Of a stretch of 64,000 nt of DNA, positions 3,555 to 26,439 are shown in pieces. The notes under the pieces were generated by a model, which worked only from the letters and a program-made list of their open reading frames with translations, had not been told where the DNA came from and ran no database searches. Made by a program: the position numbers and the translations under genes. The DNA is from Sulfurospirillum halorespirans DSM 13726 (lineage in GTDB: Bacteria; Campylobacterota; Campylobacteria; Campylobacterales; Sulfurospirillaceae). The stretch covers positions 62,001 to 126,000 of the forward strand of contig NZ_CP017111.1 of assembly GCF_001723605.1 (NCBI RefSeq). Reading direction: 5' to 3'. Numbering within the stretch: the first letter of the stretch is position 1; every line of letters begins with the position of its first letter.

Positions 3555-4057
3555 TGGATAATTGTATGAATTTAGAAACACTTAGGCATTCGGAAATTAT
3601 TGAGATTTATAGCAAATGCATACAAGAATTAAAAAAGAGAAATATCATTCGAACAAAGAATATCACTGGTGAAATAGGTGAATATATCGCTTTAGATTTT
3701 TATAATAATAATCCTAAACTACCAAACCTTCAATTTGCACCACCCAGTACAGAAAATATTGATGCAATTAGTAGGAAGGGTGAGCGTTATTCTATTAAAA
3801 CAGTGACTAATTATGGCTCAACGGGAGTTTTTTATGGGTTACCATCTCAAGGATCTCTTGAAATACCTATGCAGAAATTCGAATACGTAATTATTGTAAA
3901 ATTAAACGATAATTTTGAATTAGAATGTATTTTGGAATTAACTTGGAATGATTTTTTGGAAAATAAAAAATGGCATAGTCGTATGCAAGCTTGGAATTTA
4001 ACATACTCTAAAAAATTAAAAGAAAAAGCAAAATGTATTTACGAGAAAGTATTATAA
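3554..4057 (+). CDS. DUF6998-like, restriction-endonuclease-like protein
   Basis: A 167-residue protein, either from the GTG overlapping the AIPR stop or from ATG 3566. The middle reads R-T-K-N-I-T-G-E-I-G-E-Y (Glu40/Glu43), then N-I-D-A (Asp70), then R-Y-S-I-K-T (Lys82). This spacing is compatible with a small PD-(D/E)XK fold and resembles DUF6998 proteins, in which a short N-terminal helix pair precedes GEYGEY-like and YxIK motifs. As last gene of the defence operon it would supply a second nuclease-like subunit. The only acidic-x-Lys element is I-K, so the catalytic triad is uncertain. The gene converges on the methyltransferase with 21 bases between. Confidence 0.55.
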   Translation: MDNCMNLETLRHSEIIEIYSKCIQELKKRNIIRTKNITGEIGEYIALDFYNNNPKLPNLQFAPPSTENIDAISRKGERYSIKTVTNYGSTGVFYGLPSQGSLEIPMQKFEYVIIVKLNDNFELECILELTWNDFLENKKWHSRMQAWNLTYSKKLKEKAKCIYEKVL

Positions 4058-4078
4058 GTAATCTTGTATAAATGTATT

Positions 4079-5344
4079 CTATAAATTATCAATTAACTTT
4101 TTTATTGTTTTTGCAATCTGTTCTGCCATTTTAGGCGGTACAGCGTTTCCTATTTGCCTAAAAGCTGATGTTCTAGGCCCTTCAAAATAGAAATCGTCAG
4201 GAAAACTTTGCAACCTAGCTGCTTCTCTTATTGATAAAGAGCGTAATTGTTGAATATCTGGATGAATATAATAGTGTCCATCCATTGCCATATGGGCAAG
4301 AATAGTATGAGATGCTTTTTCATCAGCTTTAATTACGTTGAATCTATTTGTAAATGATTCAGTGTTCTTATGGGTAATAAGTTCAGGCCTTCTACTTGCT
4401 AATTCTTTATAGCAAAGTCTTTTTTTATAGAGATTCCATGCTAATATAGCTTCTTTGTATATTTCTCGATCTCGTTCATTATGAGGTCTTGTTTCATGTT
4501 GCGTTAATATATTAAAATTCTTTTCTCGTATATTCGCTTTTATTAAATAAGCATTCGTATTCTGAATGTATTCATTTTTACCCTCTATTCGTGTTCCTGG
4601 AGTTGTTGATGGTAGATCTTTTAAAAGGTCATTGACTAAATATTTATCAATATTAATTTTTTCAAAATCAGGATATTGATACTGCATATTTTTCTTTTTT
4701 TCCCAGCCCACAATAATGATTCTTCTGCGATTTTGTAATACTCCGAAGTCAGATGCAATGAGTTCTTGGGGTTCTTCAATATGATATCCAGCTTTATCGA
4801 TAGCAGTTTTTAGATCTTTAAAGTACTGCCCATCTCCAGCACTTCTTAAACCAGGAACATTTTCAAAAATAAACATTTTAGGCTTAAAAGTAGTTAGAAA
4901 TTTGACATAATATTTATACAAAAAATTTCTTGGATCAGCACTAACAGATTCCTTCATTCTAGCTCTTCCTATGATAGAATATGCTTGACATGGAGGGCCT
5001 CCAATAATAACATCAACATGTTGCAAATTTTTATTTTTGAGATTTGCTTTAATACGCGAAGTTATTTCAGGAAAAGTTGATTCTGAAATTTCTTTATTTA
5101 TTACATCATCGGAATGTAAAACATTCGCTTTATCCCACAGAGTTTCTGTTGATATTTTTTTTAAAAGGTAATCGTAATAGATATTGAGTTTTCCTTGTTG
5201 TTTTAAATTCCAATATGCAGTTCTAGTTTTTAATGTTTTGCATGCATAAGGATCCAATTCAACATGTCCTACGAAGGTAGCATTAGCTCGAAAAAAGCCT
5301 TCAGATAGGCCTCCAGCACCTGAAAATAAATCTAGAACAACCAC
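4079..5344 (-). CDS. dcm: DNA (cytosine-5-)-methyltransferase
   Basis: A 421-residue C5-cytosine methyltransferase starting at a GTG with AGAGG upstream. Motif I is VVLDLFSGAGGLSEGF at the N-terminus. Motif IV is GGPPCQ, with the catalytic Cys near residue 119 followed by the SIIGRAR loop. Motif VI is F-E-N-V-P-G near 160, motif VIII is QNRRR near 204, and motifs IX-X are ARLQSFPDDF and QIGNAVPP near the C-terminus. The target-recognition region lies around 225-340, and its specificity cannot be read. It faces the Z1/DUF4420/AIPR operon convergently and is presumably the self-marking enzyme for it. All catalytic motifs look intact. Confidence 0.93.
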   Translation of the reverse strand: MVVLDLFSGAGGLSEGFFRANATFVGHVELDPYACKTLKTRTAYWNLKQQGKLNIYYDYLLKKISTETLWDKANVLHSDDVINKEISESTFPEITSRIKANLKNKNLQHVDVIIGGPPCQAYSIIGRARMKESVSADPRNFLYKYYVKFLTTFKPKMFIFENVPGLRSAGDGQYFKDLKTAIDKAGYHIEEPQELIASDFGVLQNRRRIIIVGWEKKKNMQYQYPDFEKINIDKYLVNDLLKDLPSTTPGTRIEGKNEYIQNTNAYLIKANIREKNFNILTQHETRPHNERDREIYKEAILAWNLYKKRLCYKELASRRPELITHKNTESFTNRFNVIKADEKASHTILAHMAMDGHYYIHPDIQQLRSLSIREAARLQSFPDDFYFEGPRTSAFRQIGNAVPPKMAEQIAKTIKKLIDNL

Positions 5345-5440: not shown

Positions 5441-5680
5441 ATGCTCGATTGCCCAATATGCTCATGGCCGTTAAAAGCCGGTAAAAAAATGGTTTATTGT
5501 TATGATGATAGTTGTGGATTTCATATCAATTACGCTCAAGAAGATCTGCTCAGAGATATAACCAAAAAAGAGGTAGAAGATCTGCTCATGGGTAAAACGA
5601 TCGAGGGATTAATTCACTTGGATATTGATTCTCCCAATTTCATTGCTTCAAAGGTCACTAAACTTGAACCGTACACGTAA
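5441..5680 (+). CDS. small zinc-ribbon protein, topoisomerase C-terminal-repeat-like
   Basis: A 79-residue protein with AAGGG 9 bases before the ATG. It has CPIC then C-Y-D-D-S-C-G-F, four cysteines of a small zinc ribbon, followed by I-T-K-K-E-V-E-D-L-L-M-G-K-T-I-x-G-L. That order resembles the C-terminal repeat of bacterial type IA topoisomerases, but here it is free-standing. Its last codons overlap the decayed start of a fic gene (TTG at 5664). The same overlap is kept at 9041-9106/9084, so zinc ribbon and fic were ancestrally one bicistron. It may therefore be a partner of Fic. Function unknown. Confidence 0.6.
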   Translation: MLDCPICSWPLKAGKKMVYCYDDSCGFHINYAQEDLLRDITKKEVEDLLMGKTIEGLIHLDIDSPNFIASKVTKLEPYT

Positions 5681-5800
5681 AAATGATTGCATTAAAATCC
5701 TCAATGAGTACTAAGATAAATTAATCCCAAATCAGTATCGTAATATTGAAAAAACAATTAGCTCTTGTGGCATAGATGAAATGCATTGTGATTATAAGTT
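5664..5800 (+). pseudogene. decayed 5' fragment of a second fic gene
   Basis: Read from TTG 5664, the sequence aligns codon by codon with the first 40 codons of the intact fic gene at 9084. It keeps NDCIKILNEY, then DKLIPNQYRNIEKTI, where the intact gene has DDCLKLLNKY and GKLISDQYRNIEATI. The codon corresponding to Gln17 is TAA at 5712-5714. The match fades after about 5800, where the convergent STAND gene ends at 5867. The fragment shows that a zinc-ribbon/fic pair once stood here. Nothing else is recognisable between 5800 and 5866. Confidence 0.75.
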
Positions 5801-5866
5801 TGTACTAATATAGTTAATGCTTTTTTATAGCATTTTATAATTTCAAGAAAAAGCATAGATTATAAA

Positions 5867-8449
5867 TTAATTTATCCCACAGCATTTTTTATATTTTTTA
5901 CCACTCCCGCAAGAGCAAGCATCATTCCGCCCTATTTTCTTTATATTGTTTTGTATCATTAATGAATGTGTATAGTGTATATTTTCTTGAGTTTGAATAG
6001 TATAAATATGGTTTGGGCCTAGTGTTGCATTCAAAATATTGAATGATTTAGTTAAATATTCAATTGATTCATTATATTCCCCGATATCGGCATTATATAC
6101 ACCCATTGTATTATAAGACATGGCAGTATCCAATGCATATGCCCCTTGTTGTATTTCTCGTATATTCATTGCTTTTTTAATCAAAGGGTATGCTTTTGAA
6201 TATTTTTTTGTATATCTATATAATTCACCTAAATTATTATACACAGAGGCTGTATCAATATGTTCTTCTCCCAAAGTTATTTCATATCTGTTCATAGCTT
6301 CTATGTAGAAAGGCAATGCTTTTTCTCTTTGATCCATTTTTGCATATATAAAACCTAAATCATTATAACTTTGCGCAATTAGAGGATTATCATCTTTAAA
6401 AAATTTCTTTCTTGAATTTAATGCTTTTTTAAAAAAATCTAATGCTTTATCATATTGTTGTTTTATTTGATAAGCTTCTGCAATGCCTTTATAGACAAAA
6501 CTTTCTTTAGGATTACTTTCGTACAATTCCATAATTTTCAATGCTTTAGAAAAATACTCAAAAGACTTATCGATCTGTCCAAAAGTTTTATATAGATGTC
6601 CTCTATTAGAATATTGTCCTGCTAACGCTAAAGAGTTTTCATCTAAATATTGTTCAGATATTAAAATAGATTCTTCCATATATTTCATTGCATTTGCATA
6701 ATCGCCAAGTCTTCTATATATTTCACCTAGTGAAGAGTAAACTTCTGCTGTATGCATTTTATGCAAATCATTTATCTCATTTGATATTTCTAGAGCTCTA
6801 TGGAAAACTTCTAAGGATAAGTTGATGTTACCTAGATGCAAATATACATTTCCAATTCGTTGAAAAAATATAAACACTTCTTGATTATATATATTTAGTA
6901 CTTTCAAAAACTTATATAATGATTCAAAAAATATTAATCTATTTTTGTGATCTAAACTGACTTCTATCTCTACACTGTGTTGAAGAATTAAATTATAAAA
7001 AGTTAGAGGTATTTTTATGTCTTCAAAGCTTGGTGTATGCGATGAAAACAAATACTCTTTATTAATTTGATGTAATTTATATCCCTTGAAAGATCCGTCA
7101 TTATATTTAATTAACCAACCTTTTTCAGATAAATAATTTAACATATCTTCAAAATCTGTTTCATCTTCTTTCTGCAAAATGAGTTTCAAATCTCGAAAAA
7201 GTATAAATGCTGAAGGGAAAATAGATATTTGTTTTAAAGCTAGGATCTCCTCATTCTCTAAACCATCAATAGTAAACAACTCATCTAAAAGCTTTTTAAA
7301 GCTTTCTTTTCTATTCATTTTAATTTTTGAAAACTCTCCATTTTGAAAATATTCTAGTATTTTTTCTGGAGTCAATGAATCTTTATTGGATAGAGTTTTA
7401 GCAATTTTTTCTATAAAAAAAGTATGATTATCTAAATAATTTAAAATTTGCTCCAACAAAGTATCTTCAATTTTATAAATTGAATTAAATAAATTTTTTG
7501 CATCATCAAGACTCATCACACTTAATTCGAAGCATTCGATTGTATCTATTGTTTCTCTAGATGTAAGCAGTAAAGTAAATCCATAGTCTTTTAATGATAA
7601 TAAAATATTAATACTATTAATATCTAAAATATTATCAATTACAAAAAGCTTTCTACCGTTTAATTTTCTAAGGGCAACTATAGCTTCTTTCAATATATCA
7701 GGCTCAATTTCAGATTTCAAATTCAAAATCAATTTAAGATCGGAGATCATGCTGGATATATCGTCAAATAAACCATAATAATCGTATGAATCTTTATTTT
7801 GAGTTACATAGTGATTTGCAAGTGATGATTTACCTATACCTCCGATACCATTAATTAATAATGTTTTGTTGGTTTTTAATATACTATCAATCTTTTTGAG
7901 TTCATTTTCTCGTCCAATGAATCCCGTTGTTTGACTTGAAGATTTGATACTTAGTTGTTTAGGGATAAAACTATCTAAATTTTTTGCGATCTCCGGATAA
8001 TATTTTGAGAAAAAATCTCTATTATCTTTATTATAGAAATCATTCAAGTATGATTCTATAGTTTCCCAACCCCAATATTCTACAATAATCTTTTCTGATG
8101 ATAATTTTTTTGCTTCATCCTGGATCACTGCTGATTGTTTATGCGTAGAAAAAAATAGATATTTACATTCTCTATTCTGGCAAGATTCTTGCATTTTTGT
8201 CTTGGCTTTATTCAATTCATTATTTATCTCTTCTATAATTATCTGATCTTTGATCGTTTCTTTGCTTTTATGTTTGGATTGAAAATAAATATCACCACTC
8301 GTACTATGCCCATCGATCCCAAATTGTGATTGACCTTTTTTGCCATACAACTGAAAAGTAAAAGCTGGATATAGTAGTTTTACAAAATCTCGAGAAAAAT
8401 TTTCAAATTGAATTTCATCTTTTATTATATTAAATCGATATCTTTCCAT
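5867..8449 (-). CDS. STAND NTPase: nuclease-like N-terminus, NB-ARC, TPR array, SEC-C tail
   Basis: An 860-residue protein. Residues 1-150 look like a Mrr/PD-(D/E)XK-type domain (G-I-D-G with Asp46, then I-Y-F-Q-S-K with Gln57 and Lys59). FIGRENEL at 177-184 opens an NB-ARC NTPase with Walker A GIGGIGKSS (201-209), Walker B KLFVIDNI (267-274) and LLLTSRE (293-299). A winged-helix-like segment follows near 430-480, then about 300 residues of TPRs of the kinesin-light-chain type (repeated YxxLGxxY and Y-x-x-A patterns). The last 21 residues are a SEC-C zinc motif with C-x-C and C-C (Cys845, 847, 856, 857). The layout of effector, NTPase switch and repeat sensor is that of prokaryotic NLR-like antiphage proteins. 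The role is inferred from architecture and island context. Confidence 0.85.
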   Translation of the reverse strand: MERYRFNIIKDEIQFENFSRDFVKLLYPAFTFQLYGKKGQSQFGIDGHSTSGDIYFQSKHKSKETIKDQIIIEEINNELNKAKTKMQESCQNRECKYLFFSTHKQSAVIQDEAKKLSSEKIIVEYWGWETIESYLNDFYNKDNRDFFSKYYPEIAKNLDSFIPKQLSIKSSSQTTGFIGRENELKKIDSILKTNKTLLINGIGGIGKSSLANHYVTQNKDSYDYYGLFDDISSMISDLKLILNLKSEIEPDILKEAIVALRKLNGRKLFVIDNILDINSINILLSLKDYGFTLLLTSRETIDTIECFELSVMSLDDAKNLFNSIYKIEDTLLEQILNYLDNHTFFIEKIAKTLSNKDSLTPEKILEYFQNGEFSKIKMNRKESFKKLLDELFTIDGLENEEILALKQISIFPSAFILFRDLKLILQKEDETDFEDMLNYLSEKGWLIKYNDGSFKGYKLHQINKEYLFSSHTPSFEDIKIPLTFYNLILQHSVEIEVSLDHKNRLIFFESLYKFLKVLNIYNQEVFIFFQRIGNVYLHLGNINLSLEVFHRALEISNEINDLHKMHTAEVYSSLGEIYRRLGDYANAMKYMEESILISEQYLDENSLALAGQYSNRGHLYKTFGQIDKSFEYFSKALKIMELYESNPKESFVYKGIAEAYQIKQQYDKALDFFKKALNSRKKFFKDDNPLIAQSYNDLGFIYAKMDQREKALPFYIEAMNRYEITLGEEHIDTASVYNNLGELYRYTKKYSKAYPLIKKAMNIREIQQGAYALDTAMSYNTMGVYNADIGEYNESIEYLTKSFNILNATLGPNHIYTIQTQENIHYTHSLMIQNNIKKIGRNDACSCGSGKKYKKCCGIN

Positions 8450-8565
8450 TTAATGCTTCCTGCAAATATAAGCTTTTGATGTTTATTGTATTCTTATTTT
8501 TATTATTTTATCAAGTAACTCTCTATAAATCTGCTCATTTATAATGCTCAAATGGAGACTTTTAG

Positions 8566-8682
8566 GGCGTCTTTTTTTGGGATACCCTCAAAACATTAGA
8601 CGCTCTTGAAGAAAATTACTTTAAAAACTTAACAGATAATAATTATGATAAAATTTATTTTGATACTAGTTACATGCAATAA
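8566..8682 (+). other. possible coding remnant between STAND gene and 8714 gene
   Basis: The 264 bases between the divergent STAND gene and the 8714 gene should hold the promoters of both. One frame after a TAG at 8563 reads 38 residues with protein-like composition (W-D-T-L-K-T-L-D-A-L-E-E-N-Y-F) and ends at TAA 8680. It has no start codon or ribosome site. It could be a decayed gene end or chance. Confidence 0.25.
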
Positions 8683-8713
8683 AATATTTTGAAATTATAA
8701 AGAAAGGTTTGAT

Positions 8714-8983
8714 ATGAATATAGTATATACAATTAATATTAAAGATGATAGTAATTATGAAATAATAATGACAGAAAAAAGTATTGAAGAATTTTGCGAT
8801 TTACCTATAAATGGTCAACTCCAATTAGGAAATTATAGAGTAACGAGGAGTGGCGATCAGATATCGTTTAATTATGGTAGCCAAGAGGGAACAATTTTAC
8901 CCTCAGGCACATATGGCGAAATTTGTAAAAAATTGCAAGAAGGTATAAAAAATTATAAACAAAATGAAAAAATTAATATTTAA
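8714..8983 (+). CDS. hypothetical protein, 89 aa
   Basis: A small acidic/polar protein with AGAAAGG 8 bases upstream of its ATG. It starts MNIVYTINIKDD, includes LPINGQLQLGNYRVTRSGDQ and ends lysine-rich. There is no signal peptide, membrane segment or cysteine. The alternating pattern suggests a small beta-rich fold. It stands alone, divergent from the STAND gene and before the fic module, inside the segment bracketed by the two zinc-ribbon/fic copies. I do not recognise a family. Confidence 0.5.
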   Translation: MNIVYTINIKDDSNYEIIMTEKSIEEFCDLPINGQLQLGNYRVTRSGDQISFNYGSQEGTILPSGTYGEICKKLQEGIKNYKQNEKINI

Positions 8984-9040
8984 ATATATTATTTAGTTTA
9001 GGACATAGAATTTTGAATTAGTATATCTAGCGTCTGAGTG

Positions 9041-9106
9041 GATATCTTCGTACCCAATTTCATCACTTCAAAGGTCGCCAGATTTGAATCCTACATGTAC
9101 AGATGA
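9041..9106 (+). pseudogene. 3' remnant of the zinc-ribbon gene upstream of fic
   Basis: In frame this reads D-I-F-V-P-N-F-I-T-S-K-V-A-R-F-E-S-Y and stops at TGA 9104. It matches the last codons of the intact zinc-ribbon gene (D-I-D-S-P-N-F-I-A-S-K-V-T-K-L-E-P-Y at 5622-5680). A TGA sits two codons before the match begins, so only the tail survives. With the fragment at 5664-5800 it forms an imperfect direct repeat, about 5622-5800 and 9041-9200, around the STAND gene. Confidence 0.7.
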
Positions 9107-9935
9107 TTGCCTCAAACTCCTCAATAAATACCAGGGTAAATTAATATCGGATCAATATCGAAATATAGAAGCCACGATAGGTAATCATGCTCTCGAGGGA
9201 ATGTTTGCAGATAAATACGATATTGATAGATTAGTACGTATGGCAAAAAATGATTTATCCTATGAAGAAGCACGCATTGAGGCTATCACAGAGATCAAAA
9301 ACATACGTGCGCAGATCCAAGATAAGAATACCGAACTGCCACTCTTTGATCAAGAACTATTAAGCTCGAATAAAGTCGAGGCCATAAATTTAAAAGATTT
9401 ATTTTTGAAAGAACAAAAGCTAACGCTTATTACAGAATTATCGATAAGAGATAAGCCAGTTACGGGGATCTTCGATTTTAACTACCTCCAGGCCATTCAT
9501 AAACGCCTCTTTGATGATGTCTATACGTTTGCCGGAAAAGATCGTTTTGAGATGGGATATCCTGGTGTATTTGTCAAAGGTGGGACACGCTTCACACCAG
9601 GGATCAAATTACCAGAAGTATCCAAAGCTCTTTTTGATGCGCTTCGAGATGATAATTTTTTTGTGAATTTGGATCACAAAGAATTTGCTCAGGAAATGGC
9701 GATCTTTTTTAATGGGTTAAACTTGCTGCATCCATTCCGTGAGGGAAATGGGCGAACGCAGCGTTTATTTATGGAAAGCCTCGCTCAAAATGCCGGTTAC
9801 ATTTTATCACTCCATCAAGTCTCTCAAGAGGCAATGATCAGAGCGTGTCAAAACGCTGCTAAAGGGTTTATCAATAGCCTCGAGATACTTATGAGGCATC
9901 ATCTTGAGCTGATAGAAACAAGCGATAGAAGCTAA
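9084..9935 (+). CDS. fic: Fic family protein with fused VbhA-like inhibitory segment
   Basis: A 283-residue Fic protein with the complete active loop HPFREGNGRTQR (His216 to Arg227), so AMP-transfer or related nucleotidyl transfer is expected. Before the Fic core, residues 30-75 read NHALEGM followed by a helical segment ending EEARIEAITEI. This resembles VbhA-type antitoxins with their (S/T)xxxE(G/N) helix fused to the toxin. Here Glu38-Gly39 are kept, but the Ser/Thr position is Asn34. The start is TTG 9084, supported by the conserved overlap with the zinc-ribbon tail. An ATG at codon 40 would remove the inhibitory helix. It is likely a self-inhibited toxin or interbacterial/phage-response enzyme. 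Confidence 0.85.
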   Translation: MNPTCTDDCLKLLNKYQGKLISDQYRNIEATIGNHALEGMFADKYDIDRLVRMAKNDLSYEEARIEAITEIKNIRAQIQDKNTELPLFDQELLSSNKVEAINLKDLFLKEQKLTLITELSIRDKPVTGIFDFNYLQAIHKRLFDDVYTFAGKDRFEMGYPGVFVKGGTRFTPGIKLPEVSKALFDALRDDNFFVNLDHKEFAQEMAIFFNGLNLLHPFREGNGRTQRLFMESLAQNAGYILSLHQVSQEAMIRACQNAAKGFINSLEILMRHHLELIETSDRS

Positions 9936-10013: not shown

Positions 10014-10091
10014 CACCTCTTAAACCCACCGATGAAAAAACCGTGTCGGTATTTTTCACAGTGTGTGTGTAACCCGGTGCTATCTCCAGAT
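10014..10091. repeat. direct repeat copy A (78 bp) flanking the PLD/zinc-finger pair
   Basis: Begins CACCTCTTAAACCCACCG and ends GGTGCTATCTCCAGAT. It matches 12362-12437 base for base except for one extra GT in a short GT run. It contains a short inverted repeat (ACCGA ... TCGGT, 13-base loop, then ATTTTT) and a second possible pairing (CACCG with CGGTG). It starts 78 bases after fic ends. The rest of 9936-10160 shows no gene. Confidence 0.9.
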
Positions 10092-10160
10092 CAGATTAAT
10101 TAGAAACTGAACATTACTCTAGTTATAAAGTAAGAAACCAAGATATTGGCACATTATATT

Positions 10161-11369
10161 TTAATTAGAAAACAGATTTCCATCATACAAAATAGCATCT
10201 AACATAGCAGCTCGGTTATTCCAAAGAGCTAATTCTTCTGCTTTTTGAGGTTTTCCGCTATCCCACCATTTTGTATTTTTGATTCTTTCGATGATATCAT
10301 CCCAATAGCGTTCATATTCTTTTCTGCCAATTTTTTTAATTCCGAAATCATCATACAAGATTTTTTCATTTGCTCCAGTTAAGCAAAAAAATACATCTGG
10401 TCTTATCATTGACAGGATACGACTTACGGTGGGAACTCCATAACCATATTTATCATGCTCTTGAAAATATTCAATATATTTAAGGTAATCCTCTTTATTA
10501 ATATCACCATCTTTTGGAATGTGTTTCAGGGCTTTAGATATATTTACATGTTCATCAGAAATTCTATTTTTAAACCGTGGTGATGCCATGTGTCCAAAAT
10601 ACATCCAATCTAACTCTGGATTATCTTTATCATATTTTACAATTCCAGCAATTTGTTTTCTGTATTCTTCCGGCATATCTTTATATTCCCATTTTGTAAA
10701 ATATTCATGAGCTTTTTTTAAAAGTTCAAGTCTAATCTCAAAAGAATGGTATTTATCATTTTTTGCACTTTTATAAAATTGTGACCATGTAAGAGTCATA
10801 ATATTTGATAGATATGCAGGTTTTCCTGGCGATTCTTGACTATATTCATCTGCCAAATGTGACCGTATATGTAATTTCTTATCCCATAGGCTCTTATATC
10901 GGTTGTAGTCGTCATCATTAAATATTTGCGCAGATGACCAGTACCTTTCTAGTTCATTACTTAACTGAGTGAATATAATACTTGCTTGAGAATCATTACT
11001 GTTAAAATGGAGAAGCATTTCAGTATTTTTTTTCATTGCAGCAGCCGTAAAATTAGCACTTCCTATCAAACACTCCCATTCATTTTCAGAATTTGAAAAT
11101 AAATATACTTTCGAATGAAATATTCCCTTAGGATCTGTTTTAAATCTCATATGATCACTATTTAGGAAGGCTTTAATAAACTCGGGATGCGTTTGATAAA
11201 AATGAATACCGACACAACTATGATAGATTTTAGAGGTATTTTTCATAAGCATATCAAAAGCCAAAGAGTTATTTGATGCCCATGCACTAGCAAATTGAAT
11301 TTGCTCATATTTTTGAATCAGTTTGCATAATGTGGACTCAATTTGTCTAGGGGTAGTTAGTAAGTGCAT
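10161..11369 (-). CDS. phospholipase D-like (HKD-type) family protein
   Basis: A 402-residue protein whose N-terminal 150 residues contain a PLD-type site: GIFHSKVYLF (His85, Lys87) followed by LIGSANFTAAAMKKNTEM. The Asp of a strict HxKxxxxD is Ser92, so this is one of the variant nuclease-like members found in defence and type III restriction contexts. Residues 200-400 are alpha-helical, rich in W and Y, with IRPDVFFCLTG and KNTKWWDSGKP, and match no domain I know. It is first or second in a reverse-strand pair with the zinc-finger gene (58-base gap), and the pair sits between the two direct repeats. Role inferred as defence. Confidence 0.7.
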   Translation of the reverse strand: MHLLTTPRQIESTLCKLIQKYEQIQFASAWASNNSLAFDMLMKNTSKIYHSCVGIHFYQTHPEFIKAFLNSDHMRFKTDPKGIFHSKVYLFSNSENEWECLIGSANFTAAAMKKNTEMLLHFNSNDSQASIIFTQLSNELERYWSSAQIFNDDDYNRYKSLWDKKLHIRSHLADEYSQESPGKPAYLSNIMTLTWSQFYKSAKNDKYHSFEIRLELLKKAHEYFTKWEYKDMPEEYRKQIAGIVKYDKDNPELDWMYFGHMASPRFKNRISDEHVNISKALKHIPKDGDINKEDYLKYIEYFQEHDKYGYGVPTVSRILSMIRPDVFFCLTGANEKILYDDFGIKKIGRKEYERYWDDIIERIKNTKWWDSGKPQKAEELALWNNRAAMLDAILYDGNLFSN

Positions 11370-11427
11370 ATTGTTACCTTATAATGAATTCAAGATTATT
11401 CATACGTAAGCCCAACTCTAAATCTAC

Positions 11428-12132
11428 CTAAATTATTTTGTTACACCAATCAATTTGTTTAGGAGACAACTTTATGTAAGGCGCACTTAAATAGTCTATG
11501 TTGGTCTCAATGGGACTAGCCGTAATTGGTGTGGTATTGTTATACGAATAGCGATATAAATTTGCATTAAAACCATCGTGTATCCACAGTTGATCAAAAT
11601 TCTCTATCCCTCCGTCATACATAAAAATGAATTTATAGATTCTTTTTTTTTGATAACTACGACTTGGTAGAAAATTTATTAAAGTAACTAAGACATATGG
11701 TAGATATTCTGGCTTTAGATTGGCATATGCATATATATTTAATCTTGATGCTTCTTTTAGTATTTCGATAAATTCTTCTTTGAAAGCTAAGCAAGGTGCG
11801 ATCTTAAGTATTCTTGTATAAATATGCTCTAAATGATTTTTCAAAAATTCTTTATTTGCCCGAACAATTGCTGGATCAGGATGCGTTGGAAACAATATTA
11901 GATAAGGAAGAGCATTTTTTGCTTTAGTTGGACAATATGAATTATGATCAACATGGTAAAAATGCTCATTGTCTTGAGTTTGTCCACCTCTTAACCTCAT
12001 ATCGTGTTTGCATACAGGGCATCTTGCTGGAGAGGCTAACCGATCAGTTACATGGCCGTTGTCGACAATAAACTGTTTATATTCTAGTATAGAAATGACT
12101 TTATCTAAAGTAGGATGCAAGGCTCTATCCAT
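11428..12132 (-). CDS. zinc-finger protein of unknown function (CoiA-like N-terminus)
   Basis: A 234-residue protein with a probable metal site: C-P-V-C at 38-41, then E-H-F-Y-H-V-D-H and a Cys at 67. The spacing recalls the zinc element of CoiA-like competence proteins and some HNH-adjacent fingers. The C-terminal 150 residues are mostly helical, with the segment LKPEYLPYVLVTLINFLPSR, and I recognise no family. It is transcribed before the PLD-like gene and is probably co-expressed with it. The pair is the whole cargo between the two direct repeats. Confidence 0.55.
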   Translation of the reverse strand: MDRALHPTLDKVISILEYKQFIVDNGHVTDRLASPARCPVCKHDMRLRGGQTQDNEHFYHVDHNSYCPTKAKNALPYLILFPTHPDPAIVRANKEFLKNHLEHIYTRILKIAPCLAFKEEFIEILKEASRLNIYAYANLKPEYLPYVLVTLINFLPSRSYQKKRIYKFIFMYDGGIENFDQLWIHDGFNANLYRYSYNNTTPITASPIETNIDYLSAPYIKLSPKQIDWCNKII

Positions 12133-12301
12133 GATAATCCTTTGAATATTGATTGTAAAGAAGTATAAACAATAAATAACGTGATAATAGATTTAATGTA
12201 ACTTTAGCAAAATTTATTGTTGCCTATTATACGTTAAAATAATAACTTGTTATTCAAATATAATTTTGGATATTTTATATAAATAATAGTGTGGCATGAA
12301 A

Positions 12302-12323
12302 AAAATAAGCAAATGCTTATTTT
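12302..12323. other. 10-bp inverted repeat in the 12133-12527 intergenic stretch
   Basis: AAAATAAGCA, two bases, then TGCTTATTTT is a perfect hairpin or dyad. It lies 170 bases upstream of the reverse-strand zinc-finger gene, so it is more likely an operator or a terminator of lost material than its terminator. The rest of 12133-12527 is AT-rich, carries repeat copy B and the TTGGAG ribosome site of the 12528 gene, and shows no other gene. Confidence 0.45.
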
Positions 12324-12361
12324 GATGTGGCAAAAGTCGTTATTAGAGTCAGTCGCTGACA

Positions 12362-12437
12362 CACCTCTTAAACCCACCGATGAAAAAACCGTGTCGGTAT
12401 TTTTCACAGTGTGTGTAACCCGGTGCTATCTCCAGAT
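12362..12437. repeat. direct repeat copy B (76 bp) flanking the PLD/zinc-finger pair
   Basis: Same sequence as 10014-10091 in the same orientation, one GT dinucleotide shorter. The similarity stops sharply at both ends, so this is a true short duplication. It lies 91 bases before the GIY-YIG gene. Together the copies bound a 2.3 kb cassette. Confidence 0.9.
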
Positions 12438-12527: not shown

Positions 12528-13580
12528 ATGACACAAAAAGAATATGAAAACGACATAGTTAATAAACCATTTATAAAGTCAGTAACATTTCATAGCGAAA
12601 ATGGGCAAATGAAATTAGTTGATGAACCCAATAATTTTTCAAATACCAATCATCCAATTGGATCTATCCCTTTACAATTAATTAATGCATTAAAAAAAAC
12701 ATTAGATAAGCATGAAATAAATCTATTTGAAAATTTTATTAGATCAAAAGAATGCTCAGAAAAAACAATCAAAAATACTACATTGAATAGTTTTGTAAAA
12801 GAATGTATAAATAAGTTTATTAATAGTTTAACTGATACTAAAGAACAAATTTCAGAAGATCACGATAATTTAGAAGTTATTTATCTTCAATCTTTCTATG
12901 GACCCCCAGTAAATATAATGATTAAATTAATAGTCGACAGTAGGCTTATACCTTTTGGGTTTAGCGAATTTAATTTTGATATTAATGAATATATGGAGAC
13001 AACCGAAGGTAAATTTATATTAAAAAGTTATAGCGAAGAAGATGATAAATATTTTGATTCAATTGGGTGCAGTTACAGATTTATCGTTTCTGGCTCAAAA
13101 GGAGATTTATTCCATCAATTTAGTTTTCCAAATGTAAAAAAGGATAAAAATATTGCAAAGGCAATGGATATCTTAATTCCCCCTATGGGAAATAATAAAA
13201 CTAATATATTTTGGCAATGTTTAGATCATTTTATATTATATGAAGTTAAATTGGCACCGTGTAACAGATTGGATTTTAGTAATGGTAAGCTAACTCCACG
13301 GGAGATTTTGGACAATAAAACGCACATTGTCTATATAGCTAGAGATATCGACAATGTTGTGAGATACATTGGTGAAGGTAAGAAAGATAGATATTTACAT
13401 GTAAACTCTGGGGTATCTCATGTTAAAGAGTTAAATAGAGAGTATTTCGAAGGAAGGCAAATGAGCATTGAAATATATAATGATAACCTATCTAAGATAG
13501 AATCTCTATCTATTGAGCGATTTTTACTCAATAAATATAAGAAATGTGGACTATGGAATAGCAAAGATTACGAAAAATAA
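12528..13580 (+). CDS. protein with C-terminal GIY-YIG-like nuclease domain
   Basis: A 350-residue protein with TTGGAG 7 bases before its ATG. Residues 265-350 read H-I-V-Y-I-A-R-D then V-R-Y-I-G-E-G-K-K-D-R, S-H-V-K-E-L-N, IESLSIERFLL and LWN at the end. This fits a GIY-YIG-type nuclease core (VYI ... YIGEG, conserved Arg, Glu and terminal Asn). The first 260 residues are low-complexity, charged and unknown, and may recognise DNA or a partner. It stands alone between repeat copy B and a terminator-like hairpin, which suits a separately acquired defence cargo. Very AT-rich. It has one TTACATGTAA at 13395-13404. Confidence 0.6.
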   Translation: MTQKEYENDIVNKPFIKSVTFHSENGQMKLVDEPNNFSNTNHPIGSIPLQLINALKKTLDKHEINLFENFIRSKECSEKTIKNTTLNSFVKECINKFINSLTDTKEQISEDHDNLEVIYLQSFYGPPVNIMIKLIVDSRLIPFGFSEFNFDINEYMETTEGKFILKSYSEEDDKYFDSIGCSYRFIVSGSKGDLFHQFSFPNVKKDKNIAKAMDILIPPMGNNKTNIFWQCLDHFILYEVKLAPCNRLDFSNGKLTPREILDNKTHIVYIARDIDNVVRYIGEGKKDRYLHVNSGVSHVKELNREYFEGRQMSIEIYNDNLSKIESLSIERFLLNKYKKCGLWNSKDYEK

Positions 13581-13597
13581 ATATTTAAAAGCAACTT

Positions 13598-13628
13598 ATA
13601 CAACTCTGTATATTATGCAGAGTTGTAT
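13598..13628 (+). terminator. hairpin between convergent genes
   Basis: ATACAACTCTG and CAGAGTTGTAT form a perfect 11-bp stem with a 9-base loop just after the GIY-YIG gene and before the end of the reverse-strand 13682 gene. There is no clean T-run, so termination is likely but not certain. It could serve both strands. Confidence 0.6.
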
Positions 13629-13681
13629 AGTAACAAGTTTGTATAAGCCGAATAAGTTATTTTGAGAAAATTCAATAGTAT

Positions 13682-21075: not shown

Positions 21076-23931
21076 ATGCTTTCAATTGCAAATATGAATA
21101 GCGCACAAGCGGCTCATTATCATGCAAAAGATCAAAACTATTATCAGCAAGACAAAGAGACAAGCGTGTGGACTGGCAAAGGTGCTGAACGCTTAGGTTT
21201 GAGCGGAGAGATTGATATTAAACAGTTTGAGCGATTGTGTTACGGTATTCATCCGAGTGAAGAACGCACTCTTGTTGATATCAGTGAAAGAGCGGGAACG
21301 GATCTAACCTTTTCCGCTCCAAAATCCGCATCGATCTTATGTGAATTAGGTGATGAACGTACCAATCAACTCATACGTACAGCGCATGATCAAGCGGTGC
21401 AAACCACACTATCATTTGTAGAAGATCATTATGCTCAAACGAGAGAACAAAAGGACGGGCATAGAGAAGCAATTTCTACTGGTAATCTCATCATCGCTAA
21501 ATTTCAGCACGATACCAGCAGAGAGAATGACCCATCATTGCATACGCATTGCTTTATCGTCAATGCAACGCAAAAAGAGAACGGTGAATGGCGAGCGTTG
21601 CACAATGATCAACTCTTCACTCACAAAATGTTTTTAGGTCAGACGTATCGCAATGAATTGGCCAAAAATCTTAGAGAGCAAGGATTCGCTATTGAGATTA
21701 CGAATGCCAAAGAGGGATTCTTTGAAATTAAAGGTGTTTCCAAAGAGTTGATCAGTGAATTTTCACAACGTCGTGAGCAAGTCCTCAAGAAATACCAAGA
21801 GTTGAAAAAGCAATATCCTGGTCTCGAGGAAGAAAAGCTCAAAGAGATGGCAACAACCGGCAGCCGAAACGTGAAAGATAAAAACGCTGATCGCAGCGTT
21901 ATTAAATCTAACAATATCGAAAGAGCCAAAACTATTCTCGCCGGTAAAGATTTGATATATTTGAATCAGCTCAATAGCTCACATGCCAATCATGAACAGC
22001 AAAAATTAACGGCTAAAGATGCGGTGGATCTTTCGATTCGTATTCAAAGCGAAAAGACGAGTGTATTTAATCGTGAAGATGTGATGAAAAACGCAATGAA
22101 GCTTTCGTTAGGCGAGCATTCACTTAGTGCGATGCAGAGTGCTTTTGATGATCATGTCAATGAGCGATCGATTGTGCAACTGGATCAAAATGCTTACTCT
22201 ACACCAGAGCTCTTGCAAAAGGAGTTTGAGATTGTTGCAATGGCAAAAAACCGCACAGATCCTTTAATCTCTGCTCAACACGTGGAGCAATATCTAAGCC
22301 ATACGCCTTATAACCTCACAAAAGGACAACAAGAAGCGTATGCGCAGATTCTCACAAGCAATGAGTCTATTTCAGTGATTCAGGGCGATGCAGGTACGGG
22401 TAAAACGTTTATGCTTAAGGCCGTCAGGGAAACGCTTGAGAGTCAAAAGCAAAGTAGCAATCTCAGAGGAGTTGCATTTACCGGGAAAGCTAGTGAAGAG
22501 CTTGAGCGTGAAAGTGGTATTCCCTCTACGACACTGCACGCTTTTTTTGTGAATCCACCGGCAGAAAAGAATATGGTTTATGTTGTCGATGAGGCTTCAA
22601 TGGTCAGTTCGTTACAGATGCACCACTTATGTGAAGTTGCTAGAGAAAACCATTCAAAAATTGTGTTTATCGGTGATCAAAAGCAATTTCAATCTCTAGG
22701 TGCTGGCAATATGTTCTCGCAGCTTCAAAAGCAAAGTGATATTCGTATCGTTGAGATGACAGAAAATAAACGCGCGCAAACAGAATTGATGCGATCGCTT
22801 TATTCATCTATCAAGAGCAAAGATTTGGAAGAGGCGTTTGGCATTTTGGAAAAGCATCAACGACTTCATGAAACGACAGATCTCGAGAAGATAAAAAACG
22901 AATACCTCAAAGATCGTCATGATACGTTACTTCTCGTTGATACGAACGCGAATCGTAGAGCTTTAAACGAGTTAATCAGAGCAGATCTCGTCGCTCAGAA
23001 TGAAGTAACACAATCTCAACCGTTATCTATCAAAGAGGCAATAAATCTAAATGAGATTGAAAAGCACTACTCGAGCAATTACCAAGTAGGCCAAATTGTT
23101 GTCGCACAAAATGCGTTTCAAGGATTTAGCGCTGGGCAAGAAGCGATGATCACCACGATTGATCATCAAGCCAATACGATTACCGTTATGAAAGATGAGC
23201 AAAGGATCAAAATAGATCTAAGTAAAGCTCATGCTCAAGCAATTCAAACCTTTGCTATCAAAGAAAAAGCGTTTGGTATCGGCGACAAAATCGTTTTTAC
23301 AAAAAACAATCGAAACCTCAAGTTTAGAAATGGTGAGGCTGCTGTGATCCAAGCAATTCATGGGAATATCATCAAAGTGCAAAAGGGAAATAAAGAGTTG
23401 GCGTTTGATGCTTCCAAGTATCCTTATATCGATCATGGATACGTGATTACAGCGCATAAAAGCCAAGGTCAAACTACTAGTAGGGTTATCGCTTTCACGA
23501 ATGCACAAATGGCCAATTTAAACCGCTTCTACGTGCAAATTACCAGGGCAAAATGTGATGCCTTGATCTATACCAACAGCATAGCAACACTCAAGGAGAA
23601 TACACAAAAAACACAAATTAAAACAAGTACCCTAGATTATTTTAGGTCGGCAATGCAGCATGAGGCACATACAAATCATAACTACGAAAGGACATTCAAT
23701 GAGCAAAAAGAACGAAGAATATCAAGAGGATCAACTCTTTCAATACTGGGAGACTATTGCACAAAGTGCAAAATTGCACTCGCAGATCTTAGCCGACATC
23801 TTGGCTTATTTAAAAGAGATCGATCAGAGGCTTCAAGCACTCGAGGCAAAGATCAAATGAAAAATATCTTACTTAAAAATGAGCGCGAAAAAGCAGCTCA
23901 ATCCAGAACACAATCACGAGAAAGGAGATAG
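21076..23931 (+). CDS. traI: MobF-family conjugative relaxase/helicase
   Basis: A 951-residue protein. The relaxase domain (1-300) has neighbouring tyrosines (Tyr22, Tyr23), DLTFSAPKSASI and the three-histidine metal site HDTSRENDPSLHTHCF (His145, 156, 158). The helicase half has Walker A G-D-A-G-T-G-K-T-F near residue 440, V-V-D-E-A-S-M-V near 505, and RecD2-like motifs to Y-V-I-T-A-H-K-S-Q-G-Q-T. It would nick oriT and unwind the transferred strand. It is the decisive evidence that the island is conjugative or mobilizable. The last 75 residues are basic and also encode another ORF in a second frame. Confidence 0.93.
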   Translation: MLSIANMNSAQAAHYHAKDQNYYQQDKETSVWTGKGAERLGLSGEIDIKQFERLCYGIHPSEERTLVDISERAGTDLTFSAPKSASILCELGDERTNQLIRTAHDQAVQTTLSFVEDHYAQTREQKDGHREAISTGNLIIAKFQHDTSRENDPSLHTHCFIVNATQKENGEWRALHNDQLFTHKMFLGQTYRNELAKNLREQGFAIEITNAKEGFFEIKGVSKELISEFSQRREQVLKKYQELKKQYPGLEEEKLKEMATTGSRNVKDKNADRSVIKSNNIERAKTILAGKDLIYLNQLNSSHANHEQQKLTAKDAVDLSIRIQSEKTSVFNREDVMKNAMKLSLGEHSLSAMQSAFDDHVNERSIVQLDQNAYSTPELLQKEFEIVAMAKNRTDPLISAQHVEQYLSHTPYNLTKGQQEAYAQILTSNESISVIQGDAGTGKTFMLKAVRETLESQKQSSNLRGVAFTGKASEELERESGIPSTTLHAFFVNPPAEKNMVYVVDEASMVSSLQMHHLCEVARENHSKIVFIGDQKQFQSLGAGNMFSQLQKQSDIRIVEMTENKRAQTELMRSLYSSIKSKDLEEAFGILEKHQRLHETTDLEKIKNEYLKDRHDTLLLVDTNANRRALNELIRADLVAQNEVTQSQPLSIKEAINLNEIEKHYSSNYQVGQIVVAQNAFQGFSAGQEAMITTIDHQANTITVMKDEQRIKIDLSKAHAQAIQTFAIKEKAFGIGDKIVFTKNNRNLKFRNGEAAVIQAIHGNIIKVQKGNKELAFDASKYPYIDHGYVITAHKSQGQTTSRVIAFTNAQMANLNRFYVQITRAKCDALIYTNSIATLKENTQKTQIKTSTLDYFRSAMQHEAHTNHNYERTFNEQKERRISRGSTLSILGDYCTKCKIALADLSRHLGLFKRDRSEASSTRGKDQMKNILLKNEREKAAQSRTQSRERR
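23699..23860 (+). CDS. small coiled-coil protein overlapping the 3' end of the relaxase gene
   Basis: In the +2 frame relative to the relaxase, an ATG 8 bases after AAAGGA opens 53 codons: MSKKNEEYQEDQLFQYWE then helical heptads (LHSQILADILAYLKEIDQRLQALEAKIK). The composition is protein-like, unlike the basic, low-complexity relaxase tail in the same bases. It lies wholly within traI. Partner unknown; perhaps an accessory factor for relaxase or coupling protein. Confidence 0.5.
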   Translation: MSKKNEEYQEDQLFQYWETIAQSAKLHSQILADILAYLKEIDQRLQALEAKIK

Positions 23932-23933
23932 TA

Positions 23934-25505
23934 ATGTCAACGATTTTATTATGTTTATTGTTTAATGCCGGTGCTTTATGGGTGTTCCAAAAAAATCTTC
24001 CAATACCAGGCGGCGCAGTCTTTATTCTACTTTGTATTGCGGAGTATCTAGCTTGGGCATTTATCTTTAAAATGCAAGAGTCGATCAATGGACGTATTTT
24101 TGATGATAAGGCGTGGGTAATGGGAAGTTATCCCAATTACTATGAGCAAACGGAAGGCAATCGATGGACGGCTTCCCAACGAGTTAAAGAAATTATGTCA
24201 AAAGGTGAATTGTTTCTGGATCAGTTTCGATTTGATGATAGCGTTTTATATCGTTTATCAACGGTTTATGGGTTTGAAAAACGATTTAGTAATTTTGAGT
24301 GTTATACAGATCCGACAGACTTTACTCAGTCGGGGATTATATTTGGAGGTATGGGATCAGGAAAAACAGAATTTTACCACTCTACTATCGCTCAAGATAA
24401 GTTCGATCGTGTCATTGCCTATGATACAAAAGGTGATCTTGTTCAAAAGCATTATAGCTCGTTGAAAGATATCATCCTCAACCCGTATGATCAACGAAGT
24501 CATATTTGGAATCCTTTTGAGGAAGCTAAAACGAGTCCTTTTGTGACAGAGATCTTTTTAACCAATCTTTTCAATGCGTTAAGCGGCACGCAAAAAGACT
24601 TTTTTAGCGCAAGTTCCAAACAACGCTATATGAAGCTTTTTAACGATATTCTTTACAACAATAGTGAACTTTCATCGAATGAGCAGTTTGATCTTTTCAT
24701 TCAGCAGCTTAAAGAGTATTTCGAAGAAAATAAAAATCATGAAAGACGTAGTGAAGCAGATGTTGCCAGTACGATGCATTTGACGTTTGAATTTTTTGAT
24801 TATATGAACTTTTGTATTCAAAATGGCAGCCCTACTTTTACGATTAAAGAATATCTCTCTCGTAAGAGCTGCAAGCTCTTCTTACTCTCGAGGGATGATC
24901 AGCGCTCAAAACTTACCCCGTTTTTTACCGGCTTTTTGGCCGCTTTAACGGCTGTCATGTTAAGCCAAGAAGATCAAAAAACCTCTCTCACTCTCTTTGC
25001 TCTTGATGAGTACCTCTCTTTTGCTCAAAACCTCGATAGTGAAACGATCGAGGGGTTACATACCAGGATCAGAAGTAAAGGCGGTTGTTTGCTCCCTGGT
25101 GTACAATATTTCCCAGAGCAAAGCAACAAAGCGGACAGTGCTCAAGGGATTACGCAAAAGATGTTAAACTCAGCTGCATATTGGTTTTTATTTCAAGGTG
25201 TGGATGAATATACACTTAAAAAAATCAATAATACAATCGGTAAAGTACGTTATAGAAAAGAGCAGATTAGAGAGCAACTTACTGCTGATCCGTTGAATCG
25301 TAAAAATTACCAAATCGAAGAAGCGGATCTGCTAAATACCAGTTTGTTTCAATCGTTAGGCCAAAATTATGAGCATATCACGTTTGTGCCGTCGAAACGT
25401 ATTTTGTATAAAGGGTATACGCCAAGAGCGGAGTTGCCAAGTAAAAAAGCGAACTATGTTCAAAGTGAGAATATCGAAAAATATTATCGGGAGGGACGGG
25501 TATAG
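23934..25505 (+). CDS. traD: type IV coupling protein (TraD/TrwB-like)
   Basis: A 523-residue protein with two N-terminal membrane segments (about 4-20 and 27-46), Walker A GGMGSGKT (138-145) preceded by SGIIF, A-Y-D-T-K-G-D-L-V, and Walker B L-T-L-F-A-L-D-E-Y near 355. Later comes R-S-K-G-G-C-L-L-P-G-V-Q-Y-F, typical of VirD4/TrwB ATPases. It would deliver the relaxase-DNA complex to a transfer channel. It begins 2 bases after the relaxase stop (AAAGGAGAT site), so the two are co-translated. Last gene of the operon. Confidence 0.9.
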   Translation: MSTILLCLLFNAGALWVFQKNLPIPGGAVFILLCIAEYLAWAFIFKMQESINGRIFDDKAWVMGSYPNYYEQTEGNRWTASQRVKEIMSKGELFLDQFRFDDSVLYRLSTVYGFEKRFSNFECYTDPTDFTQSGIIFGGMGSGKTEFYHSTIAQDKFDRVIAYDTKGDLVQKHYSSLKDIILNPYDQRSHIWNPFEEAKTSPFVTEIFLTNLFNALSGTQKDFFSASSKQRYMKLFNDILYNNSELSSNEQFDLFIQQLKEYFEENKNHERRSEADVASTMHLTFEFFDYMNFCIQNGSPTFTIKEYLSRKSCKLFLLSRDDQRSKLTPFFTGFLAALTAVMLSQEDQKTSLTLFALDEYLSFAQNLDSETIEGLHTRIRSKGGCLLPGVQYFPEQSNKADSAQGITQKMLNSAAYWFLFQGVDEYTLKKINNTIGKVRYRKEQIREQLTADPLNRKNYQIEEADLLNTSLFQSLGQNYEHITFVPSKRILYKGYTPRAELPSKKANYVQSENIEKYYREGRV

Positions 25506-26186: not shown

Positions 26187-26351
26187 TAGTTTAATTAGCT
26201 ATTGGATGGATTGCAATAGATTTTTTAAGAGAAATATTGAATTGCCAAATTGGCTTTGTTGGAAATAGGTTGGAAAGAAGCTTTTTCGATTTTTCTTAAA
26301 TTGCTTTAGAATATCGATAAAATGGGAGTTTTGAAGGAATTTAAGGATTGG

Positions 26352-26439
26352 TGGCCGGGAGAGAGGGATTTGAACCCCCGGAGGTATAACCCTCAACGGT
26401 TTTCAAGACCGCCGCATTAAGCCGCTCTGCCATCTCCCG
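26352..26439 (-). tRNA. tRNA-Ser (anticodon TGA)
   Basis: Acceptor CGGGAGA pairs with TCTCCCG. The anticodon loop CTTGAAA gives TGA. There is a long variable arm, as expected for serine, the TTCAAAT T-loop and an encoded CCA. It is the last tRNA of the cluster and lies next to the island, so its 3' end is the natural integration-site candidate. Confidence 0.95.

What the first reader, a model, noticed from the sequence alone, without database searches (positions are those of the whole stretch)
10014..12437. A two-gene cassette exactly bracketed by 76-78 bp direct repeats
The repeats at 10014-10091 and 12362-12437 are identical except for one GT. Between them lie only the PLD-like gene and a zinc-finger gene on the opposite strand to the neighbours. 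There is no transposase or integrase. The arrangement looks like a swappable defence cassette that inserts by or can be lost through recombination between the repeats.
Basis: seen in the sequence. Interest (0 to 1): 0.62.

Follow-up and report, generated by a model that had tools for sequence, protein, structure and literature searches.

The report
Cargo slot bracketed by phage-type hairpins
A small mobile element in a Sulfurospirillum genome carries swappable, probably defensive, genes between two copies of a short DNA hairpin whose only known relatives are hairpins in filamentous phages of the same bacterial family, which suggests that the element borrowed a phage signal.

Summary
In detail: two direct repeats (78 and 76 bp, one GT difference, no substitutions) bracket a PLD-nuclease gene and a zinc-ribbon gene, with no recombinase between them. 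The site lies in the cargo region of a 31.7-kb integrative mobilizable element in tRNA-Ser. The same locus in three other Sulfurospirillum genomes has two repeats with other cargo (twice) or a single repeat. The single-repeat site has the flanks expected of the empty site. So the 'swappable cassette' reading is largely supported, with two corrections. Exchange breakpoints do not all coincide with the repeats: an identical 49-bp promoter-like block serves different cargo in two genomes. The two genes are also not a conserved pair. The unexpected part is what the repeat is. Covariance-model and pattern searches find its relatives only in intergenic regions of filamentous phages (inoviruses) of the same bacterial family. 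There it is a hairpin with compensatory changes that follows the virion-assembly (Zot/pI) type, not the replication initiator, as a packaging signal would. It is the only sequence these elements share with those phages. Most likely the repeat is a captured inovirus packaging-type hairpin that now acts as homology for cargo exchange. Packaging by a helper phage is possible but unproven.

The parts
10014..10091 (-). left copy of the repeat (78 bp); the strand that resembles the phage hairpin is the minus strand
12362..12437 (-). right copy of the repeat (76 bp; homology to other genomes continues to about 12457)
10092..12361 (.). cargo segment between the repeats (2270 bp, GC 0.31), absent from the homologous site in G017, G011 and G004
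10161..11369 (-). 402-aa PLD-type nuclease (NgoFVII/BfiI-like HKD domain, long C-terminal part)
   Evidence: Pfam RE_NgoFVII 2.1e-9, PLDc_2 2.8e-7; full-length 27-30% homologues on plasmids
11428..12132 (-). 234-aa protein with an N-terminal zinc ribbon (CPVC...HFYHVD..C), weakly DUF7830/CoiA_N
   Evidence: below curated cut-offs; homologues on plasmids without the PLD gene
12224..12272 (-). 49-bp promoter-like block, 100% identical upstream of different cargo in G011 (L012 10775-10823); contains ATAACA-16-TATAAT on the minus strand and an AATAAC-TT-GTTATT palindrome
9084..9935 (+). Fic-domain gene; ancestral left neighbour of the repeat
   Evidence: Pfam Fic 2.3e-13; adjacent to the repeat in G000, G017a, G004
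5633..5750 (+). first copy of a second, older direct repeat (end of 79-aa ORF plus start of Fic; truncated Fic stub)
9053..9170 (+). second copy of that direct repeat (78% identical), start of the intact Fic gene
5867..8449 (-). 860-aa STAND NTPase with TPR and SEC-C: cargo bracketed by the second repeat pair
12528..13580 (+). 350-aa cargo gene (weak Prok-E2_E match) in the next slot; G017a has a SIR2-STAND gene there, G004 and G011 nothing
13594..13647 (.). conserved palindromic block (ACTTATACAA...TTGTATAAG) marking the right border of the cargo region in all six elements compared
21076..23931 (+). TrwC-type relaxase of the host element
   Evidence: Pfam TrwC 1.3e-86
23934..25505 (+). TrwB-type coupling protein of the host element
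   Evidence: Pfam TrwB_AAD_bind 2.5e-33
26351..26371 (-). right end of the host element: 21-bp att repeat in the 3' end of tRNA-Ser(tga); the left copy is outside the window at G000:56690, next to the tyrosine integrase G000:56857-57954

Best explanation
The cassette is one slot in the cargo region of an integrative mobilizable element (tyrosine integrase, TrwC relaxase, coupling protein; inserted in tRNA-Ser). The ancestral arrangement was Fic gene - one repeat - palindrome. Cargo was gained next to this repeat, in three of six elements with duplication of the repeat, and is swapped or lost through homologous recombination between repeats and other shared blocks when related elements meet in one cell. 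The repeat itself is a captured or shared cis-acting hairpin of Sulfurospirillum-type filamentous phages, most likely their packaging signal. Shown here: the repeats, the different cargo, the single-repeat empty-like site, the homology of the repeat to hairpins in inovirus intergenic regions, the compensatory changes, and the lack of link with the initiator type. Inferred: that recombination is RecA-type, that the hairpin is a packaging signal, and that the cargo is defensive.
For: Same backbone locus in G017, G011 and G004 with one or two repeats and other cargo; empty-site flank match. The two window copies share a private CCAGAT variant, as expected after recent duplication or conversion. 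A half-deleted repeat between the Fic stub and the palindrome in G017b places a single repeat there ancestrally. A second, diverged repeat pair brackets the adjacent cargo, so accretion is not specific to one repeat sequence. Hairpin homology: the covariance model hits inovirus intergenic regions in G011 (58 bits), G034, G008 and G006; a pattern scan of 2.9 million viral contigs finds only three contigs, all inoviruses; PHROGs confirm Zot/pIV and, for L108, a nicking initiator. Two stem pairs change on both sides (6 cells against 1.9 in shuffles, 0/500). The hairpin is the only sequence found shared by elements and phages. It follows the Zot class (4/4 against 0/5, plus G011 where it sits in an insert) and not the Rep type (Rep 84% identical without the hairpin in G001).
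Against: No circular, deleted or packaged form has been seen; only assembled genomes were compared. Six elements are few, and none differs from the window by exactly this cassette. The phage hairpin's function is not established: a regulatory or terminator role inside the structural operon is not excluded, although the consensus scan found no terminator at the repeats. The covariation alignment was fitted to the structure, and a two-column slide gave a similar count of double changes (7 cells), though only 61% of its cells paired. Three of the four genomes with complete repeats have no detectable hairpin-bearing inovirus.
Confidence: 0.52

Rival explanations
1. The repeat is only a bidirectional transcription terminator or insulator used between cargo genes and, independently, between phage genes. 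Its similarity in phages reflects that role, and cargo turnover uses it merely as incidental homology.
For: It lies between convergent genes at the left copy (Fic + and PLD -). A-tract/T-tract stem. In three inoviruses it lies between coat and pIII-like genes, where M13 has a terminator (own knowledge).
Against: The terminator scan finds none here: the GC stem is 3-4 bp and the T-run is inside the stem. The right copy lies between divergent genes. Similarity extends beyond the hairpin (CACCTC..TAAACCC, ACAC.CTGTG). In G034 and G011 the position in the phage operon differs. Hairpins at the same place in related phages often lack a T-run after the stem.
Confidence: 0.28
2. Natural phagemid: the element or the 2.35-kb segment between two hairpins is replicated and/or packaged as single-stranded DNA by a helper inovirus, like the RS1 satellite, and re-enters recipients by recombination at a single-repeat site.
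For: Homology to the phage hairpin with nothing else shared; same orientation in all seven copies; direct repeats; single-repeat site; an inovirus (G011) that itself carries the hairpin in an apparently acquired 710-bp insert; G011 holds both kinds of element.
Against: No virion DNA evidence. The hairpin does not follow the initiator type, so it is probably not the replication origin, and excision between copies would need another nick site. The loop sequence differs from the phage loop.
Confidence: 0.17
3. The repeat is a small non-autonomous mobile element (MITE-like) inserted independently at two places; the genes between are ordinary cargo and not a cassette.
For: Sharp left edge at CACCTC in all copies, also in the phage copy of G011; left flank unrelated in G004_right.
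Against: Only two full copies per genome, always in the same cargo region and orientation; right flanks shared among copies; no terminal inverted repeats or target duplication seen.
Confidence: 0.08
4. Site-specific gene-cassette system (integron attC or dif module).
For: Gene-plus-repeat architecture; hairpin; no recombinase in the cassette.
Against: No RYYYAAC/GTTRRRY site in either strand; no difH core (consensus from PMC2731167 and PMC3325230); spacing between the TGAAAA/TTTTCA arms is 14 rather than 6 bp.
Confidence: 0.02

Closest known systems
Cargo/defence hotspots of mobile elements, e.g. P2/P4 (PMC9122126)
   Same: One locus of a conserved backbone holds different, probably defensive genes in relatives.
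   Different: Here the border is a short duplicated hairpin related to another kind of phage, and cargo accretes in tandem.
RS1/CTXphi-type filamentous phage satellites (PMC4439123, PMC11389934) and the reported plasmid satellite of an inovirus (Schmid et al. 2024, seen only as a reference in PMC11389934)
   Same: An element carrying an inovirus cis signal; direct tandem copies of an inovirus sequence.
   Different: No phage gene found, an integrase of its own, a relaxase for conjugation; packaging not shown.
dif modules of Acinetobacter plasmids (PMC13141974)
   Same: Small gene modules, often toxin-antitoxin (a HigBA-like pair also in G004), bordered by short shared sites, no recombinase of their own.
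   Different: Sites are not dif or difH.
Ff packaging signal / phagemid (PMC4823517)
   Same: A cis-acting phage signal that lets another replicon be packaged by a helper filamentous phage.
   Different: No sequence similarity tested; function here inferred.

Membership tests
Swappable cassette by recombination between repeats | homologous site with one repeat and no cassette | tested here: met
   G017a; flanks as predicted, though a different gene lies further right
Swappable cassette by recombination between repeats | different cargo between the repeats in relatives | tested here: met
   G011 and G004
Swappable cassette by recombination between repeats | excised or circular form in cells | not testable with these tools
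   needs reads or PCR
Integrative mobilizable element (host element) | integrase, att repeat in tRNA, relaxase, no full conjugation apparatus | tested here: met
   no VirB4-type ATPase was named, but only selected genes were searched
Inovirus packaging-type hairpin | homology to an intergenic hairpin of inoviruses | tested here: met
Inovirus packaging-type hairpin | structure kept by compensatory change | tested here: met
   2 pairs, 6 cells, 0/500 shuffles; alignment fitted to the structure, and a -2 slide gave 7 cells
Inovirus packaging-type hairpin | follows the assembly protein type, not the initiator type | tested here: met
   ten phages only; three class-B viral contigs also lack it, two of them identical to phages already counted
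Inovirus packaging-type hairpin | causes packaging of the DNA that carries it | not testable with these tools
   experiment needed
Filamentous phage satellite | phage replication origin and/or phage-like genes | tested here: not met
   no protein shared with eleven inovirus loci at E 1e-5; the hairpin is not initiator-linked
Integron gene cassette | attC core sites and an integron integrase | tested here: not met
   core sites absent; no IntI seen in the element
dif/difH module | TGAAAAC-N5-TTTTCA core | tested here: not met
   PMC2731167

The most novel reading that the evidence does not exclude
A conjugative-type mobilizable element has acquired the packaging hairpin of a filamentous phage, so that the element or its hairpin-bracketed defence cassettes are exported in phage particles of a helper inovirus: a natural phagemid that spreads swappable genes by two routes, conjugation and filamentous virions.
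Probability: 0.18. Interest if true: 0.85.

Novelty: new variant of a known kind. Interest (0 to 1): 0.56.

Why it matters
It links two kinds of mobile DNA that are usually treated apart: integrative mobilizable elements and filamentous phages. If the hairpin is a packaging signal, it gives a directly testable route by which small gene cassettes without a recombinase move between cells. It would also identify the packaging signal of a group of inoviruses for which, to my knowledge, none has been described. Even if not, the locus shows in a few genomes how cargo accumulates stepwise by duplication of border sequences.

Tried and rejected
Exact 35-bp core in GTDB contigs and viral contigs: none. 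Plasmids: no repeat. First loose pattern in viral contigs gave one chance match inside a gut contig. Weak class-level model hits in G285, G206 and G282 lie in housekeeping genes; the family-level hit in G030 also lies among ordinary genes. Rfam has no match at the repeats. Solved structures: none for either protein. Phage collection: no hairpin match. PLD homologues in viral contigs: none. Integron attC, difH and intrinsic terminator were tested and rejected as described. Hairpin as replication origin: rejected as most likely role because it does not follow the initiator type. The conserved-pair idea for PLD plus zinc ribbon was dropped after inspecting neighbours.

Full report
WHAT IS IN THE WINDOW. 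The two repeats are real: 78 bp at 10014-10091 and 76 bp at 12362-12437, direct, identical apart from one GT. They are the only full copies in the 3.03-Mb genome. The segment between them is 2270 bp with GC 0.31. It holds a 402-aa PLD-type nuclease gene and a 234-aa zinc-ribbon gene, both on the minus strand, between a Fic gene and a 350-aa gene on the plus strand.

HOST ELEMENT. The genus is Sulfurospirillum: G004 has the contig length of S. diekertiae JPD-1. The window lies at G000:62001-126000. The site belongs to an element at G000:56690-88371, bordered by a 21-bp exact repeat in tRNA-Ser(tga). It has a tyrosine integrase at its left end and a TrwC relaxase and TrwB-type coupling protein at its right. 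It looks like an integrative mobilizable element of about 31.7 kb.

COMPARISON. The repeat occurs in 4 of 24 genomes of the genus and, in full length, always at this locus. G011 and G004 have two copies with other cargo between them: in G011 an unassigned 331-aa gene, and in G004 a HigBA-like pair with further small genes. G017 has a single copy followed by a SIR2-STAND gene. In G017 the left flank equals the left flank of the window's left repeat, and the right flank resembles that of the window's right repeat (score 14, reached by 0.05% of random 30-mers) and not that of the left repeat (score 6, reached by half of them): the pattern expected of an empty site. A fifth element (G017b) retains only the left part of the repeat between a Fic stub and a conserved palindrome, so a single repeat at this position is ancestral. 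A sixth (G022) ends at a contig edge and is uninformative.

EXCHANGE IS NOT CONFINED TO THE REPEATS. A 49-bp block upstream of the zinc-ribbon gene is 100% identical to a block upstream of unrelated cargo in G011, and its core was found nowhere else in the genus with up to three mismatches. It contains a promoter-like pair of hexamers. Next door, a second direct-repeat pair (5633-5750 / 9053-9170, 78%) made of the end of a 79-aa ORF and the start of Fic brackets a STAND NTPase gene. Its two copies are each about 89% identical to G004 over the aligned stretch and only 78% to each other, so they come from different lineages. The simplest account is stepwise accretion by homologous recombination between related elements.

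THE GENES. Homologues of the PLD protein (27-30%, mostly full length) and of the zinc-ribbon protein (24-37%) occur on plasmids of many bacteria. In the records inspected they are not next to each other, and only one distant zinc-ribbon relative was found in 397 class genomes. A defence role is plausible from the domains and from neighbours such as McrC and UvrD-type genes, but untested.

WHAT THE REPEAT IS. A BLAST match in G011 (E 8.5e-6) lies in an inovirus prophage just upstream of a coat-like gene. A covariance model then found weaker matches in G006, G008 and G034, all between inovirus genes. A degenerate pattern over 2.9 million viral contigs gave exactly three contigs, all inoviruses (two of them match the G006 and G008 phages). 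PHROGs confirm Zot and protein IV, and a nicking initiator in L108. Elements and inoviruses share no protein at E 1e-5 and no other DNA at E 1e-4. The hairpin contains the only 13-mer common to the five phages. The stem is CNN-TGTGAAAAA/TTTTTTCA-NNG, with exchanges of A-T, C-G and G-C pairs at two positions (6 double changes against 1.9 in shuffles, 0 of 500; 97% of cells paired). Caveats: the alignment was fitted to the structure, and sliding the partner by two columns gave 7 double changes with 61% of cells paired.

WHICH FUNCTION. Rep proteins of hairpin-bearing phages are of three kinds (25-30% alike), while G001 has a Rep 84% identical to that of G011 and no hairpin: so it is probably not the initiator's origin. 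The Zot/pI type separates better: 4 of 4 class A phages have the hairpin, 0 of 5 class B phages have it, and G011 (class B) has it inside a 710-bp insert absent from its relatives. Three class-B viral contigs also lack it, but two of these are identical to the G002 and G001 phages. In more distant class A phages the same intergenic place holds a long hairpin of different sequence in 6 of 8 loci, several without a T-run after the stem (best-of-many-windows, not a controlled test). This fits a packaging signal better than a terminator or origin, but it is inference.

MECHANISM, AND WHAT IS NOT KNOWN. Shown: locus, alternative contents, empty-like site, homology of the repeat to phage hairpins. 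Inferred: RecA-type exchange, packaging signal. Open: whether the element or the cassette is packaged by a helper. Filamentous virions package DNA bearing the signal, as phagemids show (PMC4823517), and RS1 is a satellite of a filamentous phage (PMC11389934, PMC4439123), so the idea is not far-fetched. However, there is no direct evidence, and three of the four genomes with complete repeats lack a detectable hairpin-bearing inovirus.

VERDICT. I rate it a new variant of a known kind.

Noticed in passing
window 5633-9170: A second direct-repeat-bracketed cargo slot (STAND-TPR-SEC-C NTPase plus an 89-aa gene) directly upstream, with a truncated Fic stub on its left.
   Followed up: partly
window 78-5344 and L015 6211-10690: Gene set with a Z1-domain ATPase, a gene resembling AIPR (own knowledge, not searched), a DUF6998-like protein and a C5 cytosine methyltransferase: looks like a known type of restriction/defence operon; also present in G004.
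   Followed up: no
window 13594-13647: Conserved palindromic block with repeated TTGTATA units bordering the cargo region in all six elements; possibly an operator or a transfer/recombination site.
   Followed up: partly
window 12224-12272 and L012 10775-10823: Identical 49-bp promoter-like block in front of unrelated cargo genes; a shared repressor could control them.
   Followed up: partly
L111 4412-5095 (also L107 1824-2507): The G006 inovirus carries, in its own minus-strand variable region, a protein that looks PLD-like by eye (not searched against families).
   Followed up: no
L014 4072-4781: 710-bp insert in the G011 inovirus (coat-like 136-aa gene plus hairpin), absent from five related inoviruses: an apparent acquisition of the hairpin by another phage class.
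   Followed up: partly
L149-L156: Related inoviruses of other Campylobacterota have long hairpins of different sequence in the same intergenic place between coat and pIII-like genes (6 of 8).
   Followed up: partly
L011 9381-12269: 962-aa protein with a SIR2-type N-terminus (ThsA-like, 5e-28) and probable STAND part as single-gene cargo, flanked by about 10-bp direct repeats compared with the empty site in G011 and G004.
   Followed up: partly
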